From: an uncultured Verrucomicrobia subdivision 3 bacterium
Lineage (GTDB): Bacteria; Verrucomicrobiota; Verrucomicrobiia; Limisphaerales; UBA11358
Length of the DNA: 53,842 nucleotides
NCBI GenBank assembly: GCA_903870815.1
Contig: CAIQEI010000014.1
Span: forward strand, 1 to 53,842
Direction: 5' to 3'
A program made the position numbers and the translations under genes. The stretch's first letter is position 1. The number at the start of each line of letters is the position of its first letter. Below, piece by piece: positions 21,233-48,646 of the stretch. Below the pieces are notes generated by a model, which was given only the letters and a program-made list of their open reading frames with translations, was not told the origin of the DNA and ran no database searches.

Positions 21233-24200
21233 TCATCCGCGGCCGTCGGGGTCGGAAAATTTTTGGGCGGTTTCCTTGACACCGCGCAGATCGAGCTTGC
21301 CGGTGCCGAGCAGGGGGAAATTCTCCACCCGGTAAAAGGCATCGGCCTTGGGCTTCCATAAATTCGGCACGTCGCACGCGGCCAATTTTTCCAGCACGGC
21401 CGGCAGCCCGGCTTCCGGCAGCCGGTGCAGGACGACCAGTCGTTCACCCTTCTTTTCATCCGGGACGCCCGTGACCACGAACGCGATTTCGGCGACCCCG
21501 GCCAGCTCCTGCAGTATTTCCTCGATTTTCAGGTGCGGCACCATCTCGCCTCCGATCTTGCTGAAGCGATTCAGGCGGCCGGTGATTTCGAGGAATCCGT
21601 CTTCGTCGAGCGTGGCGATGTCGCCCGTGCAATACCAGCCATCACGCAGCACGTCCGCCGTTTTATCGGGCTGGTTCAGATATCCCAGCATAAGATTGGG
21701 TCCGCGCAGCAGCAACATGCCGGGTTCGCCCGGCGGCAGGATTTTTCCGCTCCACGGATTTTCGGCCTCGGCGATGCGCACACAGATGCCGGGCACCGGC
21801 TGGCCGATTTTGCCGTGCTTGCCGCCGACCTGGAAGAATCCGGCGGCGCGATAATCCCTGGTGTTCAAGGCCACGACCGGCGCGCACTCGGTGCAGCCGT
21901 AGCCCTCGAAGGGGCGGATGCCGAAGCGCTCCTCGAAGGCGGCCGCCAGACGCTCGGGCAATTTTTCCGCGCCGGTCACAATCAGTCTCAGGCTGCCGAA
22001 ATCCTCCGGCGGAACGCCGCGGAGGTAGATCTGCAGGAACGTAGCGGTGGCGAGCATGACCGTGACTTCGTGCTCGCGCACGCTGGCCCCGACGCCTTTG
22101 GCGTCGAGGGGGTTCGGATAAAACACGACGCCGGTGCCCAGCACCGCCGGGAGGCAGAGGGTGACCGTGAAGCCGAACGAATGGAAAAAAGGCAGAATGC
22201 CGAGCAACCGCTGCGATTCGTCGAGGTGTACGACCTCGGCGCACTGCTCGATGTTGGCGAGCAGATTGAACTGCGAGAGCATCACGCCTTTGGGCTCGCC
22301 GGTGCTGCCGCTGGAAAAAATCACCGTGGCCAAAGCGTCGAGCGATTTCGGATTTCGGATTTCGGATTTCGGATGGGAAGACAGCATCTGTTCCAGCAGA
22401 CCAGCCGGAGCGAGCTTGGCGAGCAGCCAGGCCGCGAGCTTTTCAAAAAACGTCGGAGCGCCGGGCTGAAGTTCACGCTTTAGAGTGTCCCCGGAGCAAG
22501 CTGAAGCTTGAACTCCAGCCAAGTCTTCGAGGAAGATGAGATTGCCCGGCGGCGTCAGCTTGATCTTGGCCAGGAATCTCCGCGAGGTGACCACGGTCCG
22601 GAGGCCGCATTGCTGAACGCAGCCGGCCAGCGTGGTTTCGGACAGCGTGTAGTTCAGGTTCACCGGCACCTTGCCGCAAAGAAAGGCGGCGTAATTCACG
22701 AGCGCGCCCGGCACGCTCGGCGGCAGATAAATCCCCACCATGGTTTGATCGCGCCAGGCATTTTTCAGGCGGCGCGCGAGGAAAATGGTTTTCACCAGCG
22801 CGGTGCCGAAATTGATCCGCCCAGAGGCGGCATCAGCAAAGGCAAACCGGTGCGGATGTTCGCGCGCCATGCGGATGAGGTTGCGGTGGAGCGGCTGCAT
22901 CCGCGCCCGTCGCCACGACCACGCGGCCGCCTGCAAATCCTGCACCGCCTCGCGCACGGCGAACGGCGCGGTGGCCGGCGGCAGCGGGCGGCCGAAACTC
23001 ACCGTGACAGGATGCGGACAGCGCGCGGTGATGAGATGCACCAATTTCCCGCGCCGATAGCTCATCGGACCGCCCAGCATGCCGTCGAGCGCCACCGGCA
23101 CGATCGGCGCGTCAACGTTTTTCATGATGCGCTCCAAGCCGCGCCGGAACGGCAGCAGCTGCCCGATGCGCGTGATCTGCCCCTCGGCAAAGATGCAGAC
23201 GACCTCGCCGGCGCGGATCGCGTCGCTGGCGGTTTGCAGGGCATGGAGCAACTCGCGCGGCCGCTGCTCGGACGAAACCGGGATGGCGCGAAGAATTTTG
23301 GCGAACGGCCGCACCCATGGTTTTTCGTAGAGGTCCTTGAACATCAAAAAACGGATCCGCCGGTCGGTCGCGGCGAGGAGCAGCAGCGCGTCGGCGAAGG
23401 AAACGTGGTTGCAGACGAACAGCGCGCCACCTTTTTCGGGAATGTGATCGCGCCCGACCACGCGGATGCGGTAGCACGAATGCGTCAGGCACCACAGCAC
23501 CAGGCGCAGCAGTGCGTCGGGCATCATTATGAGCAGATAAACCGTCGCCGCCAGCGTCGCCCCGGCCACCAGCAGAAAGATGTGCGGCGGCGACAGTTTC
23601 AAAACGGTGGTGAGCAGGCCGAAGACCGCCGAGGCCAGAGCGATGCCCACGAAGGAAATGAGGTTGGCCGCCGCCAGCACCCCGCCTTTTTGATCGCGCG
23701 CGGGCCGGTGCTGCAGCAGCACGGAAATGGGCACGATGTAGAACCCGCCGAAAAAACCGAGCGCGGAGAGATTAGCCGCCGCCGCGCCAAAAGACAGGCC
23801 GCCCCGGCTGAGCAGCGCGGCGCAGAAGGTCAGGCCGATGGCACCGAACGGGATGAGCCCGGTCTCAATTTTACCGGCGGACAGGAAGCCCGCGAGCAGG
23901 CAGCCCAGACCAATGCCGATGGCCGTGGCCGCCTGCAGATAACTGGTCCGGGTGGGATCCTTGATGGCCAGCACATCCGCCGCGTAAATGACGATGACAA
24001 ACTGGATGAGCGCCGCGATAAAGAAAAAGTAGGTATTCCCGATCAGCGCCAGCCAGAGCGGCCGATCGCGGCGTATATATTTTATCTGCGCCCACAAATC
24101 GGCGACGAAGTTGGGGCGGAATTTTTTCAACGGGTCAGCGGCGGGAACTTTGGTGATCTGCCGGCCGGTCGCCAATCCGATGAAGGCGAGGCCGGTCAAA

Positions 24201-24757
24201 ATGACGCCCGGCCAGGCCGGCTGCGCGGCAAAGGCCTTGCACATCACACCCCCGGCGACCGTGCCGGCGATGATCGCGATGAACGTGCCGAATTCCAGGA
24301 CGCCGTTGCCCCAGGACAGTTTTTTCTCCGGCAACAGCTCCGGCAGCAAGCCGTATTTGGACGGCCCGAAAATCGCGCTGTGGACGCCCATGAGAAACAC
24401 GCAGAAAATGGTCAGGTAAAGCTGCCGGGTCGCCAGGCTGAACAGGGCCAGGGACATCACAAAGATTTCGAAGACTTTCACGCCGAGGATCACCCGGCGT
24501 TTGCTGCAGCGGTCGGCCAGAAAACCGCCGCCCATGGAAAACAATATGAACGGCACGGCGAAAAGCGAACCGACGATGAAAATCAGCCGGTCGCGTTCGG
24601 TGTCCGGCAGGTTCTGCTGGGTGATGAGAAAGATGGCGAGCCACTTGAGCGCGTTGTCGCTGAACGCGCCCTGGAATTGCGTGACAATCAGCGCCCAGAA
24701 ACCACGCGTGCCGGACGGGGGCTGGCTGGCAGCCGAGGGCGGGTTGTCAATGCTCAC
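21233..24757 (-). CDS. aas: LplT-like MFS / PlsC acyltransferase / acyl-ACP ligase fusion (Aas type)
   Basis: A 1174-residue three-part protein for lysophospholipid uptake and re-acylation in the inner membrane. Residues ~15-415 form a 12-helix MFS domain like LplT. Residues ~425-600 are a PlsC acyltransferase with NHVSFAD (His451, Asp456) and FAEGQ (525-527, where the family normally has EGTR). Residues ~640-1170 are an AMP-forming ligase with the P-loop SSGSTGEPKG near 815-824, GYGCTECAP, GDIATLDEDGF and the RFSKIGGEM hinge. The start is GTG. Between ~745 and 808 the linker ahead of the P-loop contains two short interspersed-repeat insertions (QASAC and SEIRNPKS segments), which the protein apparently tolerates. 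It lies 76 nt downstream of a prepilin-like gene. Confidence 0.9.
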   Translation of the reverse strand: MSIDNPPSAASQPPSGTRGFWALIVTQFQGAFSDNALKWLAIFLITQQNLPDTERDRLIFIVGSLFAVPFILFSMGGGFLADRCSKRRVILGVKVFEIFVMSLALFSLATRQLYLTIFCVFLMGVHSAIFGPSKYGLLPELLPEKKLSWGNGVLEFGTFIAIIAGTVAGGVMCKAFAAQPAWPGVILTGLAFIGLATGRQITKVPAADPLKKFRPNFVADLWAQIKYIRRDRPLWLALIGNTYFFFIAALIQFVIVIYAADVLAIKDPTRTSYLQAATAIGIGLGCLLAGFLSAGKIETGLIPFGAIGLTFCAALLSRGGLSFGAAAANLSALGFFGGFYIVPISVLLQHRPARDQKGGVLAAANLISFVGIALASAVFGLLTTVLKLSPPHIFLLVAGATLAATVYLLIMMPDALLRLVLWCLTHSCYRIRVVGRDHIPEKGGALFVCNHVSFADALLLLAATDRRIRFLMFKDLYEKPWVRPFAKILRAIPVSSEQRPRELLHALQTASDAIRAGEVVCIFAEGQITRIGQLLPFRRGLERIMKNVDAPIVPVALDGMLGGPMSYRRGKLVHLITARCPHPVTVSFGRPLPPATAPFAVREAVQDLQAAAWSWRRARMQPLHRNLIRMAREHPHRFAFADAASGRINFGTALVKTIFLARRLKNAWRDQTMVGIYLPPSVPGALVNYAAFLCGKVPVNLNYTLSETTLAGCVQQCGLRTVVTSRRFLAKIKLTPPGNLIFLEDLAGVQASACSGDTLKRELQPGAPTFFEKLAAWLLAKLAPAGLLEQMLSSHPKSEIRNPKSLDALATVIFSSGSTGEPKGVMLSQFNLLANIEQCAEVVHLDESQRLLGILPFFHSFGFTVTLCLPAVLGTGVVFYPNPLDAKGVGASVREHEVTVMLATATFLQIYLRGVPPEDFGSLRLIVTGAEKLPERLAAAFEERFGIRPFEGYGCTECAPVVALNTRDYRAAGFFQVGGKHGKIGQPVPGICVRIAEAENPWSGKILPPGEPGMLLLRGPNLMLGYLNQPDKTADVLRDGWYCTGDIATLDEDGFLEITGRLNRFSKIGGEMVPHLKIEEILQELAGVAEIAFVVTGVPDEKKGERLVVLHRLPEAGLPAVLEKLAACDVPNLWKPKADAFYRVENFPLLGTGKLDLRGVKETAQKFSDPDGRG
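22345..22372. repeat. Heptamer tandem repeat (ATTTCGG)x4 inside aas
   Basis: Four exact copies of ATTTCGG in a row, followed by a partial fifth, encode the SEIRNPKS stretch just before the ligase P-loop. A 7 bp unit means that gain or loss of one unit would shift the frame. Confidence 0.9.
22497..22521. repeat. 25-mer interspersed repeat, copy inside aas
   Basis: A 25 nt sequence built around AAGCTTGAACTCCA occurs here within aas and again at 26181-26205 in non-coding DNA, with two mismatches and the same orientation. Confidence 0.75.
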
Positions 24758-46503: not shown

Positions 46504-47172
46504 ATGACCCCCGATCAAATCACGCAGGCAAACAAGGAACTGCGCGGCAAGCCGCCGTTGGAAATCATCCGCTGGGCAATTGGCCAAGCGAAAGGTCGCG
46601 CCATTGTCTCGACGAATTTCCGGCCTTACGAGGCGGTGATTCTTCACTTGGTGACGCAGGTGCAACCGGACATTCCGGTGCTGTGGGTGGATCACGGCTA
46701 CAATCGCGCGGCGACTTACACGCACGCCGAACTGGTCAAAAAGCGGCTCCAGCTAAACCTCAAAGCTTACCTTCCGGAAGTAACCGCCGCGCATTACGAC
46801 GCCGCGTTCGGCGGGATGCCGGAGCCGACGCCGGAAAATGAGGACCGCATCAAGGCGTTCAGCACGGCGATGAAGCTGGAGCCCTTCCAGCGCGGCATGA
46901 AAGAGCTCGCGCCGACCGTGTGGCTCACCGCGCTGCGCCAGGTGCAGAACCCCAACCGCGCCGGCCTCGACATCGTGAGCGAGGACAAGAATTTCAATTC
47001 CCTCAAGGTCAGCCCGCTGTTTTACTGGAGCGACGCGGACATGGAAAAACACCTCGCCCAGCATCATTTGCCGAACGAGTGGGATTATTTTGATCCGGCA
47101 AAGGCGGACGAGAAACGGGAGTGCGGCCTGCACGCCAGCTGGGGCGGCGAGAAGCTGGGAGCTGGAGTCTAG
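46504..47172 (+). CDS. cysH: Divergent CysH-family (phospho)adenylyl-sulfate reductase-like protein
   Basis: A 222-residue protein of the PAPS/APS reductase family. The core matches CysH: IVSTNFRPYEAVILHLV, QPDIPVLWVDHGY, LQLNLKAYLPE, WLTALRQVQNPNRAGL, FYWSDADMEKHLAQH and the catalytic KRECGLH near the end. It lacks the second cysteine pairs that bind the iron-sulfur cluster in APS reductases. It also differs at PAPS-contacting places: FG becomes FR, TGYLFPET is replaced by HGYNRAAT, RREQS by RQVQN, and the GDxHTT segment is missing. So substrate or activity may differ. The last residues and the TAG stop fall within or next to the left inverted repeat of the inserted cassette. Confidence 0.78.
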   Translation: MTPDQITQANKELRGKPPLEIIRWAIGQAKGRAIVSTNFRPYEAVILHLVTQVQPDIPVLWVDHGYNRAATYTHAELVKKRLQLNLKAYLPEVTAAHYDAAFGGMPEPTPENEDRIKAFSTAMKLEPFQRGMKELAPTVWLTALRQVQNPNRAGLDIVSEDKNFNSLKVSPLFYWSDADMEKHLAQHHLPNEWDYFDPAKADEKRECGLHASWGGEKLGAGV

Positions 47173-47631
47173 GATCTGGCGTCTGGGGAAAACCAATTCC
47201 CCGGGCCCAAGATGCCAAATCCCAAACCCAATTTATATGGGCGAGTCGTTTGAAAATTCGGAAGCGTGGATGTCGGCCCGAGTGTTGACGAACGAAGTCT
47301 ATTCGCTTTGCCAACGCGAACCACTATCACGCGATTTTGGATTGCGCGACCAGTTTCAACGGGCGGCGGTTTCAGTTATGAATAACGTCGCGGAAGGTTG
47401 GGAAAGCATGCACGTTGCGGAAAAGCGCCAAGCGTATAACATAGCCCGCAGATCATACGGCGAAGTCCGCTCCATGACTTATGTGCTGCTCGACAACAAA
47501 TTTGTGAACACCAACGAATCATCAAAGCTGCTGGCGCAATACGTTCAAACCGGCAAGCTCATCAGCGGCCTGATCCGGTCTTTAGGCAACCGATGAAGCA
47601 CCCCGAAGCCCAGACGCCAGACCCAAGACCC
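47165..47631 (+). mobile_element. Four-helix-bundle cassette with 23 bp terminal inverted repeats
   Basis: The arms 47165-47187 and 47609-47631 are inverted repeats matching at 20 of 23 positions, with a perfect inner 13-mer (TCTGGCGTCTGGG and its complement). They enclose a single ORF for an S23-type four-helix protein. The left arm contains the cysH stop codon and the right arm ends 5 nt before the cysD start, so the cassette fills the intergenic space. S23-type ORFs are best known from intervening sequences in 23S rRNA, where the flanks pair and are cut by RNase III; whether this cassette behaves likewise is unknown. Confidence 0.65.
47237..47596 (+). CDS. Four helix bundle protein (S23/IVS-encoded family)
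   Basis: A 119-residue all-helical protein. The ATG at 47237 gives MGESFENSEAWMSARVL; longer in-frame sequence overlaps cysH. Family features are SRDFGLRDQFQRAAVSVMNNVAEGW and the helix AYNIARRSYGEVRSMTYVLLDNKF, followed by LLAQYVQTGKLISGLIRSL. Related proteins occur inside 23S rRNA intervening sequences of Leptospira and others and as free ORFs, and form pentameric bundles; their role is unsettled, and nucleic acid binding has been suggested. It is inserted between cysH and cysD, has no evident metabolic link to them, and has its own inverted-repeat borders. Confidence 0.9.
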   Translation: MGESFENSEAWMSARVLTNEVYSLCQREPLSRDFGLRDQFQRAAVSVMNNVAEGWESMHVAEKRQAYNIARRSYGEVRSMTYVLLDNKFVNTNESSKLLAQYVQTGKLISGLIRSLGNR

Positions 47632-47636
47632 ATTTC

Positions 47637-48575
47637 ATGAGCAGTTATCATTTAGACCATCTGCAATACCTGGAGACGGAAGCGATTCACATCATGCGTG
47701 AGGTCGCGGCCGAGTTTGAGCGCCCCACCCTGCTCTTTTCCGGCGGCAAGGACTCCATCTGCCTGCTGCGCCTCGCGGAAAAGGCGTTCCGCCCGTCCGA
47801 CCTCCCGATGCCGTTTCTAAACGTCGAGACCGGCCACGAATTTCCCGAGTTGATTGAATTCCGCGACCGGCGCGCGAAGGAACTCGGCGCGAAACTGATT
47901 GTCCGCACCGTGGATCAAGTCGTCGCCAACGGCACGGTTATGCTTTCAAAAACCGAAATCAGCCGCAATAAGCTACAGATTCCTGTGCTACTCGGGGCGA
48001 TTGAGGAATTTCAATTCGATTGCGCCATCGGCGGCGCGCGCCGCGACGAGGAAAAGGCCCGCGCCAAGGAACGCTTTTTCAGCTTCCGCGACAGTTTCGG
48101 CCAATGGGATCCGAAGAACCAGCGGCCGGAGATCTGGAATCTGTACAACGCCAAGCTGAATCCCGGCGAGAACATGCGCGTTTTTCCGCTCTCGAACTGG
48201 ACGGAAATGGACGTTTGGGAATATATCAAACGGGAAAAACTGGAAGTGCCCAGCATCTATTTCAGCCATGAACGCGAGTGCTTCCGTCGTGGCGGCCAGT
48301 GGCTGCCGGTGCCGCCGCCGCATACCGACACCGCCACGCCCGATCCCTATGACGGCGCCCGGCCCAAACCGAATGAGCCGGTAAAGACCATGATTGTCCG
48401 CGTCCGCACCATCGCCGACATGATCAGCACCGGCATGATCGAATCGAAGGCCTATACGGTGGACGACATCATCGCCGAGGTCAGCGCCGCGCGCGTAACC
48501 GAACGCGGCACCCGCGCCGATGACAAGGCCAGCGAAGCCGCAATGGAAGACCGGAAAAAAGCGGGGTATTTTTGA
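47637..48575 (+). CDS. cysD: Sulfate adenylyltransferase subunit 2
   Basis: Catalytic ATP-sulfurylase subunit that forms APS from sulfate and ATP, 312 residues. The PP-loop SGGKDS lies at 35-40. Other family signatures are NVETGHEFPELIEFRD, CAIGGARRDEEKARAKERFFSFRD, PLSNWTEMDVWEYI, IYFSHER and TVDDIIAEVSAARVTERGTRADD (conserved as short blocks), ending in RKKAGYF. It needs the GTPase CysN, encoded 110 bp downstream. The ATG follows 5 nt after the right arm of the four-helix cassette, so its natural upstream region has been replaced; translation may depend on read-through transcription from cysI. Confidence 0.96.
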   Translation: MSSYHLDHLQYLETEAIHIMREVAAEFERPTLLFSGGKDSICLLRLAEKAFRPSDLPMPFLNVETGHEFPELIEFRDRRAKELGAKLIVRTVDQVVANGTVMLSKTEISRNKLQIPVLLGAIEEFQFDCAIGGARRDEEKARAKERFFSFRDSFGQWDPKNQRPEIWNLYNAKLNPGENMRVFPLSNWTEMDVWEYIKREKLEVPSIYFSHERECFRRGGQWLPVPPPHTDTATPDPYDGARPKPNEPVKTMIVRVRTIADMISTGMIESKAYTVDDIIAEVSAARVTERGTRADDKASEAAMEDRKKAGYF

Positions 48576-48576
48576 A

Positions 48577-48646
48577 CCACAGATTTACACAGATGAACAC
48601 AGATTTTTCAGAACACATTCAGGCCGGATGGCCGTTTGGCATCCGG
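48577..48646. repeat. CACAGAT triple motif and hairpin between cysD and cysN
   Basis: Three spaced CACAGAT units within 48577-48607 are followed by a perfect hairpin with arms CCGGATG (48624-48630) and CATCCGG (48640-48646). The CACAGAT triplet resembles a common interspersed motif of this lineage. No gene lies in this 110 bp gap. Confidence 0.6.

What the first reader, a model, noticed from the sequence alone, without database searches (positions are those of the whole stretch)
47165..47631. S23-type four-helix cassette with inverted repeats fills the cysH-cysD gap
A four helix bundle ORF is enclosed by 23 bp inverted repeats (20/23 match) and inserted precisely between two sulfate-reduction genes. 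The left arm holds the cysH stop codon and the right arm ends just before the cysD ATG. In 23S rRNA, related ORFs lie in intervening sequences whose flanks pair and are excised by RNase III. A comparable RNA-processing element inside a protein operon would be unusual; it might cut the cys mRNA or be a self-spreading element. Only the arms and the ORF family are seen; excision is inference.
Basis: partly seen in the sequence, partly recalled or inferred. Interest (0 to 1): 0.62.

Follow-up and report, generated by a model that had tools for sequence, protein, structure and literature searches.

The report
rRNA-type intervening element inside protein operon
Between two sulfate-assimilation genes of an uncultured verrucomicrobial bacterium sits a small insertion element, a conserved protein gene framed by matching 7-letter repeats that can fold into a stem, built like the elements best known as interruptions of ribosomal RNA genes; similar elements were found between genes in several other bacterial phyla.

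Summary
In detail: a 119-aa S23/IVP four-helix ORF (47237-47596) lies between cysH and cysD inside inverted arms (47167-47187 / 47609-47629). New: the arms are degenerate 7-nt tandem arrays. Of 123 S23 copies fetched from 37 related genomes, 103 have such inverted arms; identity at lag 7 is 0.66 against 0.21-0.33 at lags not multiples of 7. The 7-mer differs between copies but matches inside a copy. All 20 S23 loci fetched from plasmids of 7 other phyla have inverted arms (18 of period 7, 2 of period 8). One, in Azospirillum lipoferum 4B, lies inside 23S rRNA and replaces a 19-nt hairpin; two other rRNA loci of that strain lack it. So the rRNA intervening sequence (IVS) and this cassette look like one kind of element. 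The cysH-cysD gap is empty (5-13 nt) in 8 of 30 relatives and elsewhere holds ORF-less 7-mer hairpins or a parallel element with a GxxExxY nuclease-family ORF. The cysHD ORF evolves under purifying selection (dN/dS about 0.09). RNase III cutting of the cys mRNA is inferred, not shown; the DNA mobility mechanism is unknown. Interest 0.75; new variant of a known kind.

The parts
46504..47172 (+). cysH (phospho)adenylylsulfate reductase-type gene; its stop codon TAG 47170-47172 is inside the left arm
47167..47187 (+). left arm, degenerate 7-nt array (GTCTAGG ATCTGGC GTCTGGG), G-rich strand
47199..47232 (+). internal C-rich stretch before the ORF (CCCAAGATGCCAAATCCCAAACCC) that could pair locally with the left arm instead of the right arm; seen by eye in several cysHD copies, not tested statistically
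   Evidence: inference
47237..47596 (+). S23/IVP four-helix-bundle ORF, 119 aa
   Evidence: purifying selection in 12 cysHD relatives
47609..47629 (+). right arm, complementary C-rich 7-nt array (CCCAGAC GCCAGAC CCAAGAC)
47637..48575 (+). cysD sulfate adenylyltransferase subunit 2-type gene; ATG a few nt after the right arm

Best explanation
The cassette is an S23 intervening-sequence (IVS) element living outside rRNA: one S23 ORF between two inverted arrays of a short repeated unit (7 nt as a rule), placed in a transcribed gap, usually reading in the direction of the upstream gene. In the transcript the arrays pair into a long stem that closes off the ORF, as in rRNA IVSs; a double-strand-specific ribonuclease (RNase III) then most likely cuts the stem, so that a sizeable insert is tolerated in an operon or an rRNA (inferred for this copy; shown by others for the Coxiella rRNA IVS). 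The element and ORF-less hairpins with the same unit spread slowly in genomes; the S23 pentamer probably binds the paired arms and helps copy or insert them (inferred, no mechanism shown). The cysHD copy is an old, functional resident.
For: Architecture: 103 of 123 distinct S23 copies (37 genomes: 34 of the genus, 3 of the order) score 15 or more for inverted arms; within-copy median 20 against 9 between copies and 9 for shuffles; 101 of 123 beat 95% of their own between-copy controls, 58 beat all 60. Lag-7 identity 0.656, lag 14 0.62-0.63, lag 21 0.59-0.62, lags not multiples of 7 0.21-0.33; sequence further upstream shows no lag-7 signal. Upstream arm richer in G than C in 87 of 103. Other phyla: 20 of 20 fetched plasmid loci have arms scoring 17 or more; 16 of 20 beat every other locus's arm; period 7 best of 6/7/8 in 18, period 8 in 2. 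rRNA: the Azospirillum copy is wholly within LSU rRNA (1698.8 bits), has 7-mer arms, replaces a 19-nt hairpin, with identical flanks in two other rRNA loci of the strain, and its arms give 25 consecutive base pairs, z -8.57. Coxiella rRNA IVS: S23 ORF, 28-bp terminal stem, tandem 7-mers GACAGAT before the ORF, RNase III excision in vitro (PMC4990558, abstract and passages). Mobility signs: gap states in 30 relatives scattered on the cysH+cysD tree, S23 needing at least 10 changes in 38 rows, 5 forced by starred branches; same gap used by an unrelated S23 (L114, 33% identity). ORF-less relatives: 58 lag-7 arrays in 400 kb of G001 against 0-11 for lags 4-6 and 8-13; 10 of 17 ORF-less hairpins match S23 arms of their own genome better than 95% of equal-sized sets from other genomes, single arrays 4 of 25. 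Array density follows S23 count over 12 genomes, Spearman 0.78, p 0.003. Orientation: upstream gene on the S23 strand in 80 of 93 copies with arms and both neighbours called; neighbouring genes agree in 61% in the control. ORF function: dN/dS median 0.09 over 12 cysHD copies, cysH 0.12, cysD 0.085.
Against: 20 of 123 copies fail the arm cut-off, including 2 of 11 in this genome (L003, L007). No RNA data, so cutting is unproven; a second pairing of the left arm with the internal C-rich stretch is possible. The nearest relatives of this ORF are in the same gap (11 of 12 matches; the 12th, L252, lies after cysD in a locus that also has a cysHD copy), and close relatives elsewhere are mostly at orthologous sites, so movement is rare; S23 and cysH trees do not conflict significantly (p-AU 0.42 and 0.18). 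dS is near saturation. One zero-S23 genome, G029 (79% complete), still has 3 arrays in 55 kb; the density correlation is not corrected for kinship. Six of the ten matching hairpins are one 7-mer family. Among orthologues the two arms of a copy match each other only slightly better than those of other species (19.3 against 16.3; cysHD 17.5 against 16.3), so ongoing co-evolution of arms is weakly supported. In Azospirillum the 100% flanks may reflect rRNA gene conversion rather than recency. S23 has no known catalytic residues.
Confidence: 0.65

Rival explanations
1. A domesticated operon gene: S23 here is an ordinary, selected cys-operon gene, and the arms are transcript-stabilising or translation-tuning hairpins at its ends; no element, no movement.
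For: dN/dS 0.09, as low as cysD; nearest relatives share the same gap across Verrucomicrobia records; tree conflict not significant.
Against: Presence is scattered: empty gap in 8 of 30, other elements in 15 of 30, at least 10 changes on the tree. The same arms flank S23 copies next to unrelated genes and in 23S rRNA. Selection on the resident copy is compatible with domestication of an element, so the two readings overlap.
Confidence: 0.2
2. A REPIN/RAYT-like system: the 7-mer hairpins are the mobile units, moved as single-stranded DNA hairpins at replication forks, with S23 in the role of the RAYT transposase or with a Y1 transposase in trans.
For: ORF-bearing and ORF-less hairpins with matching units in one genome; hairpin replaced by hairpin in Azospirillum; Y1_Tnp matches in 37 of 40 genus genomes; none in G010, which also lacks S23 and arrays.
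Against: S23 is not a Y1/HUH protein by family. Three Y1 genes examined have their own G+C-rich palindromes, not 7-mer arrays.
Confidence: 0.2
3. RNA-templated spread as in diversity-generating retroelements: S23, a homologue of Avd (PF05635 membership of Avd recalled), brings the folded RNA to a reverse transcriptase in trans.
For: Same Pfam family as Avd (recalled; PMC10053308 seen in a search listing only); insertion in sense in transcribed gaps and rRNA.
Against: No RVT_1 match in this genome (11 S23) or G001 (14 S23); RVT_1 in only 12 of 40 genus genomes. The absence concerns today's genome, not past events.
Confidence: 0.1
4. The arms are chance or a property of repeat-rich intergenic DNA into which S23 happens to fall.
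For: 7-mer arrays without S23 are common in these genomes and known in Xanthomonas and Nostoc (PMC4692102, passages).
Against: Within-copy complementarity far above between-copy and shuffled controls; 20 of 20 loci in 7 other phyla; exact units checked on plasmids occur only in the plasmid that carries that S23 element, 1 of 14 records for each of two units.
Confidence: 0.03

Closest known systems
Intervening sequences (IVS) of bacterial 23S rRNA with an S23 ORF (Leptospira, Coxiella, CPR bacteria)
   Same: S23 ORF in the loop, terminal complementary arms, about 430-470 nt, transcribed in sense; tandem 7-mers reported in the Coxiella IVS (PMC4990558, passages); ORF-less forms reported in rRNA insertions of CPR (PMC11270868, passages)
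   Different: Here in a protein operon, one of 11 copies per genome, ORF under strong purifying selection, whereas the Coxiella ORF is reported as decaying and probably untranslated
S23/23S_rRNA_IVP genes in CRISPR-cas loci (PMC3936711)
   Same: Same family between genes of one operon; I also saw cas6-cas4, cas2-cas1 and cmr2-cmr3 contexts
   Different: The passages seen treat them as candidate accessory genes and mention no flanking arrays
Heptameric simple repeats: GGGAATC in Xanthomonas, GGGGA(C/T)T in Nostoc (PMC4692102); TAACTGA in Beggiatoaceae (PMC4679880); cyanobacterial STRR (name recalled)
   Same: 7-nt tandem units in gene gaps; 70 and 75 inverted pairs counted in two Xanthomonas genomes
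   Different: Not linked to S23 in the passages seen ('S23' 0 occurrences in both texts)
REPIN/RAYT systems
   Same: One protein gene flanked by, and accompanied by ORF-less, hairpins with matching sequence in the same genome
   Different: No tyrosine transposase; arms are short tandem arrays, not a single palindrome
GxxExxY (TIGR04256, PDDEXK_3) genes
   Same: In these genomes 33 fetched copies also have inverted arms of short tandem units (within median 24, between median 10, 95% 18, 99% 25), and they use the same cysH-cysD gap (3 of 30)
   Different: Unrelated protein; unit spacing 8-10 nt

Membership tests
S23/IVP protein family (PF05635, TIGR02436) | Score above curated cut-off | tested here: met
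   92.8 bits (cut-off 33.8); 87.9 bits (cut-off 24); PDB relative 2gsc E 1.9e-6
23S rRNA IVS element | S23 ORF enclosed by complementary termini able to form a stem | tested here: met
23S rRNA IVS element | Located in an rRNA gene | tested here: not met
   Window copy lies between cysH and cysD; met by its relative L289. So the window copy is IVS-like, not a member of the rRNA IVS class as defined by place
23S rRNA IVS element | Cut out of the transcript by RNase III | not testable with these tools
   No RNA data; stem predicted only
Classical DNA transposon | Terminal inverted repeats shared between copies | tested here: not met
   Arm unit similarity 0.70 within a copy, 0.42-0.46 between non-orthologous copies under 60% protein identity
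Classical DNA transposon | Target-site duplication | tested here: not met
   Azospirillum: 19 nt replaced, no duplication; none seen by eye at cysHD
REPIN/RAYT | Y1 tyrosine transposase coded in the unit | tested here: not met
   Y1 loci examined have other palindromes
Diversity-generating retroelement accessory (Avd) | Reverse transcriptase available | tested here: not met
   No RVT_1 in G000 (genome 96% complete)
Heptameric tandem repeats | 7-nt tandem units | tested here: met
   Lag-7 identity 0.656 over 112 arms of 20 nt or more; the window copy itself by eye

The most novel reading that the evidence does not exclude
S23 genes across bacteria are the coding part of one unrecognised superfamily of short selfish elements bounded by inverted arrays of a drifting 7-nt unit; rRNA IVSs are the copies that landed in rRNA, and many of the unexplained 7-nt repeats and hairpins of bacterial genomes are their ORF-less derivatives. 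GxxExxY genes head a second, convergent superfamily with 8-10-nt spacing.
Probability: 0.55. Interest if true: 0.88.

Novelty: new variant of a known kind. Interest (0 to 1): 0.75.

Why it matters
S23/IVP is a family of unknown function known mainly from fragmented 23S rRNA. Showing that its genes usually travel with matched, inverted 7-nt arrays in ordinary operons (and in rRNA) gives the family a shared anatomy, offers a source for the abundant unexplained 7-nt repeats of cyanobacteria and other groups, and makes both questions testable: does S23 bind the arm stem, does RNase III cut these stems in mRNA, and does the unit move? It also means that operon gaps in such genomes can carry processing sites that uncouple neighbouring genes.

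Tried and rejected
A test whether the 7-mer follows the S23 protein over long distances failed: no similarity below 60% protein identity and a Mantel correlation of only 0.05 (5 of 500 permutations as high), so a code 'protein clade reads 7-mer' is not supported beyond close relatives. Copy-specific co-evolution of arms among orthologues is weak. Horizontal homing into cysHD was not shown: tree conflict not significant. Reverse transcriptase in trans: not supported. Y1 transposase as the mover: flanks of 3 Y1 genes show other palindromes. A phage vehicle: one S23 query (L003) has no match in the phage collection. A wider reach by alignment search failed. Papers: nine searches of the open library listed none that links S23 genes in general to 7-mer arms; the Coxiella paper reports 7-mers in one rRNA IVS. 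Subscription papers were not searched. Papers seen: PMC4990558, PMC4692102, PMC3936711, PMC11270868, PMC4679880, PMC2408588, PMC5524665 as passages (with all or part of the abstract for the first, second and fifth); PMC10053308 in a listing only. REPIN/RAYT, Avd and STRR facts and the naming of the Azospirillum site as helix 45 are recalled.

Full report
What is in the window. The gap between cysH (46504-47172) and cysD (47637-48575) holds a 119-aa ORF, 47237-47596, of the S23/23S_rRNA_IVP family between inverted arms 47167-47187 and 47609-47629. The cysH stop is inside the left arm. A solved relative is 2gsc, XCC0516 (E 1.9e-6), which is a pentamer of four-helix bundles according to a reference title quoted.

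The arms are 7-nt arrays. The window's genome (3.17 Mb) has 11 PF05635 matches, and 40 genomes of the genus together 225 (my sum; 36 of 40 have at least one). I fetched loci giving 123 distinct copies from 37 genomes, 34 of the genus and 3 of other genera of the order. Local alignment of 200 nt upstream with the reverse complement of 200 nt downstream gives a median of 20 within a copy and 9 between copies; 101 of 123 beat 95% of their own between-copy controls. 103 of 123 reach a score of 15; of the 20 that do not, one (L061) lies at a contig end and one (L032) has a short downstream flank. In this genome 9 of 11 reach it. Inside the arms, bases 7 apart agree in 0.656 of cases; at lags that are not multiples of 7 the values run from 0.21 to 0.33, and a control stretch further upstream shows 0.25 at lag 7. 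The unit differs from copy to copy (GATTGCC, AAAGCGG, GGAGATG, GTCTGGC and others) but the arms of one copy agree: unit similarity 0.70 within a copy, 0.42-0.46 between non-orthologous copies below 60% protein identity, 0.55-0.62 in 63 non-orthologous pairs at 60% or more. The upstream arm has more G than C in 87 of 103.

Same anatomy in other phyla and in rRNA. Two S23 queries matched 25 and 24 plasmid records. I fetched 20 loci from these: 12 Cyanobacteriota, 2 Chloroflexota, 2 Bacteroidota, and one each of Gemmatimonadota, Spirochaetota, Bacillota and Pseudomonadota. In all 20 the flanks form inverted arms (score 17 or more; medians against other loci 9-12); 16 of 20 beat every other locus. 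Of lags 6, 7 and 8 the best is 7 in both arms of 18 loci, narrowly in L279 and L292, and 8 in two, L286 and L291. They sit between genes of one system: cas6-cas4, cas2-cas1, cmr2-cmr3, drmD-MmeI, hsdS-hsdR, and antisense between ribonucleotide reductase genes. The Azospirillum lipoferum 4B locus L289 is LSU rRNA over its whole 2339 nt. Compared with two other rRNA loci of the same strain, 473 nt stand in place of a 19-nt hairpin, with no target duplication. Its arms give 25 consecutive pairs in the fold, z -8.57. The strain's further rRNA loci were not examined. For the Coxiella rRNA IVS, tandem 7-mers before the S23 ORF, a 28-bp stem and RNase III excision in vitro are reported (PMC4990558, passages). 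I conclude that rRNA IVS and operon cassette are one kind of element.

The cysH-cysD gap. cysH was found in 47 of 59 relatives; loci were given for 30, including the window itself. Sorted by eye: 8 empty (5-13 nt); 4 with the S23 cassette; 4 with an ORF-less 7-mer hairpin; 3 with a GxxExxY ORF in arms of its own; 8 with ORF-less hairpins of that second type; 3 unclear (42-43 nt). On a cysH+cysD tree of 38 rows, to which further S23 carriers were added, the S23 state needs at least 10 changes, 5 forced by starred branches, and is no more clustered than shuffled labels, 246 of 500. G021 has a different S23, 33% identical, in the same gap. Yet the nearest relatives of the window ORF are in this gap: of 12 matches in named genomes 11 are there, and the twelfth, L252, lies after cysD in a locus that also has a cysHD copy; two, L253 and L254, are frameshifted. 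Several of these 12 appear to be the same contigs as loci fetched through genome handles. In 12 cysHD relatives dN/dS is 0.09, cysH 0.12 and cysD 0.085, with dS near saturation. The S23 tree does not significantly contradict the cysH tree. The cassette thus behaves as an old, selected, patchily kept resident.

ORF-less relatives. In 400 kb of G001 there are 58 lag-7 arrays, 7 of them beside the four S23 ORFs; other lags from 4 to 13 give 0-11. Lags 14 and 21 give 34 and 7, harmonics of 7. Of 17 ORF-less hairpins 10 match S23 arms of the same genome better than at least 95% of equal-sized random sets from other genomes; of 25 single arrays 4 do. The own set held 8 arms although G001 has 14 S23 matches, and six of the ten hits are one unit family. 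Over 12 genomes array density follows S23 count (Spearman 0.78, p 0.003). Zero-S23 genomes: 0 in 158 kb, 0 in 96 kb, 0 in 84 kb, but 3 in 55 kb for G029, which is 79% complete. Two exact units tested on 14 plasmids occur only in the plasmid that carries that element; in one (TAGGGAG) only at the element itself, in the other (GATTTAC) also in a further array 10 kb away.

How it most likely works. Shown: anatomy, family, presence in rRNA, patchiness, ORF-less relatives, selection on the ORF, sense bias (upstream gene on the S23 strand in 80 of 93; control 61%). Predicted: the arms pair in RNA. Inferred: RNase III cuts the stem in the cys mRNA, separating cysH and cysD messages; S23 binds the arms; the folded strand is the moving form. 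A reverse transcriptase in trans is not supported: RVT_1 is in 12 of 40 genomes and not in G000 or G001. Y1 transposases are frequent (37 of 40) but the three I examined have other palindromes.

Known or new. S23 rRNA IVSs, 7-mer repeats and S23 genes in cas loci are each known. The general link between S23 genes and inverted 7-mer arms outside rRNA was not found in nine searches of the open library. I therefore call it a new variant of a known kind, with a bolder reading in the section on the most novel reading.

Noticed in passing
window 48576-48606 (cysD-cysN gap): CCACAGATTTACACAGATGAACACAGATTT, three units about 10 nt apart, of the type that flanks GxxExxY genes in relatives; no clear inverted partner seen.
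   Followed up: partly
L213-L242, L026, L033, L035: GxxExxY (TIGR04256) genes have inverted arms of three short units spaced 8-10 nt, unit differing by copy; 36 of 40 genus genomes have the gene.
   Followed up: partly
window 22339-22379, inside the minus-strand ORF 21233-24757: A CGGATTT-type 7-mer array lies in frame inside a long acyltransferase/AMP-binding-type ORF (function by eye, no family search), read as HPKSEIRNPKS.
   Followed up: partly
L154, L172, L193: Short Y1 transposase genes with their own G+C-rich palindromes (for example AGCCCGCAGTTTCAACTGCGGG), a separate REP-like system in the same genomes.
   Followed up: partly
G011: Several GxxExxY matches and one S23 match of this genome hold in-frame TAG codons, some at contig starts; decay or another code was not examined.
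   Followed up: no
L254: A contig with a verrucomicrobial-type cys operon is filed under a Klebsiella pneumoniae MAG title, probably a mislabelled or mixed bin.
   Followed up: no
cysD-cysN gap of relatives (L015, L029, L030, L041, L103, L110, L117): Another S23 lineage with GGAGATG-type arms sits downstream of cysD in several genomes, and L029, L030 and L041 also have an ORF-less hairpin of like units in the cysH-cysD gap.
   Followed up: partly
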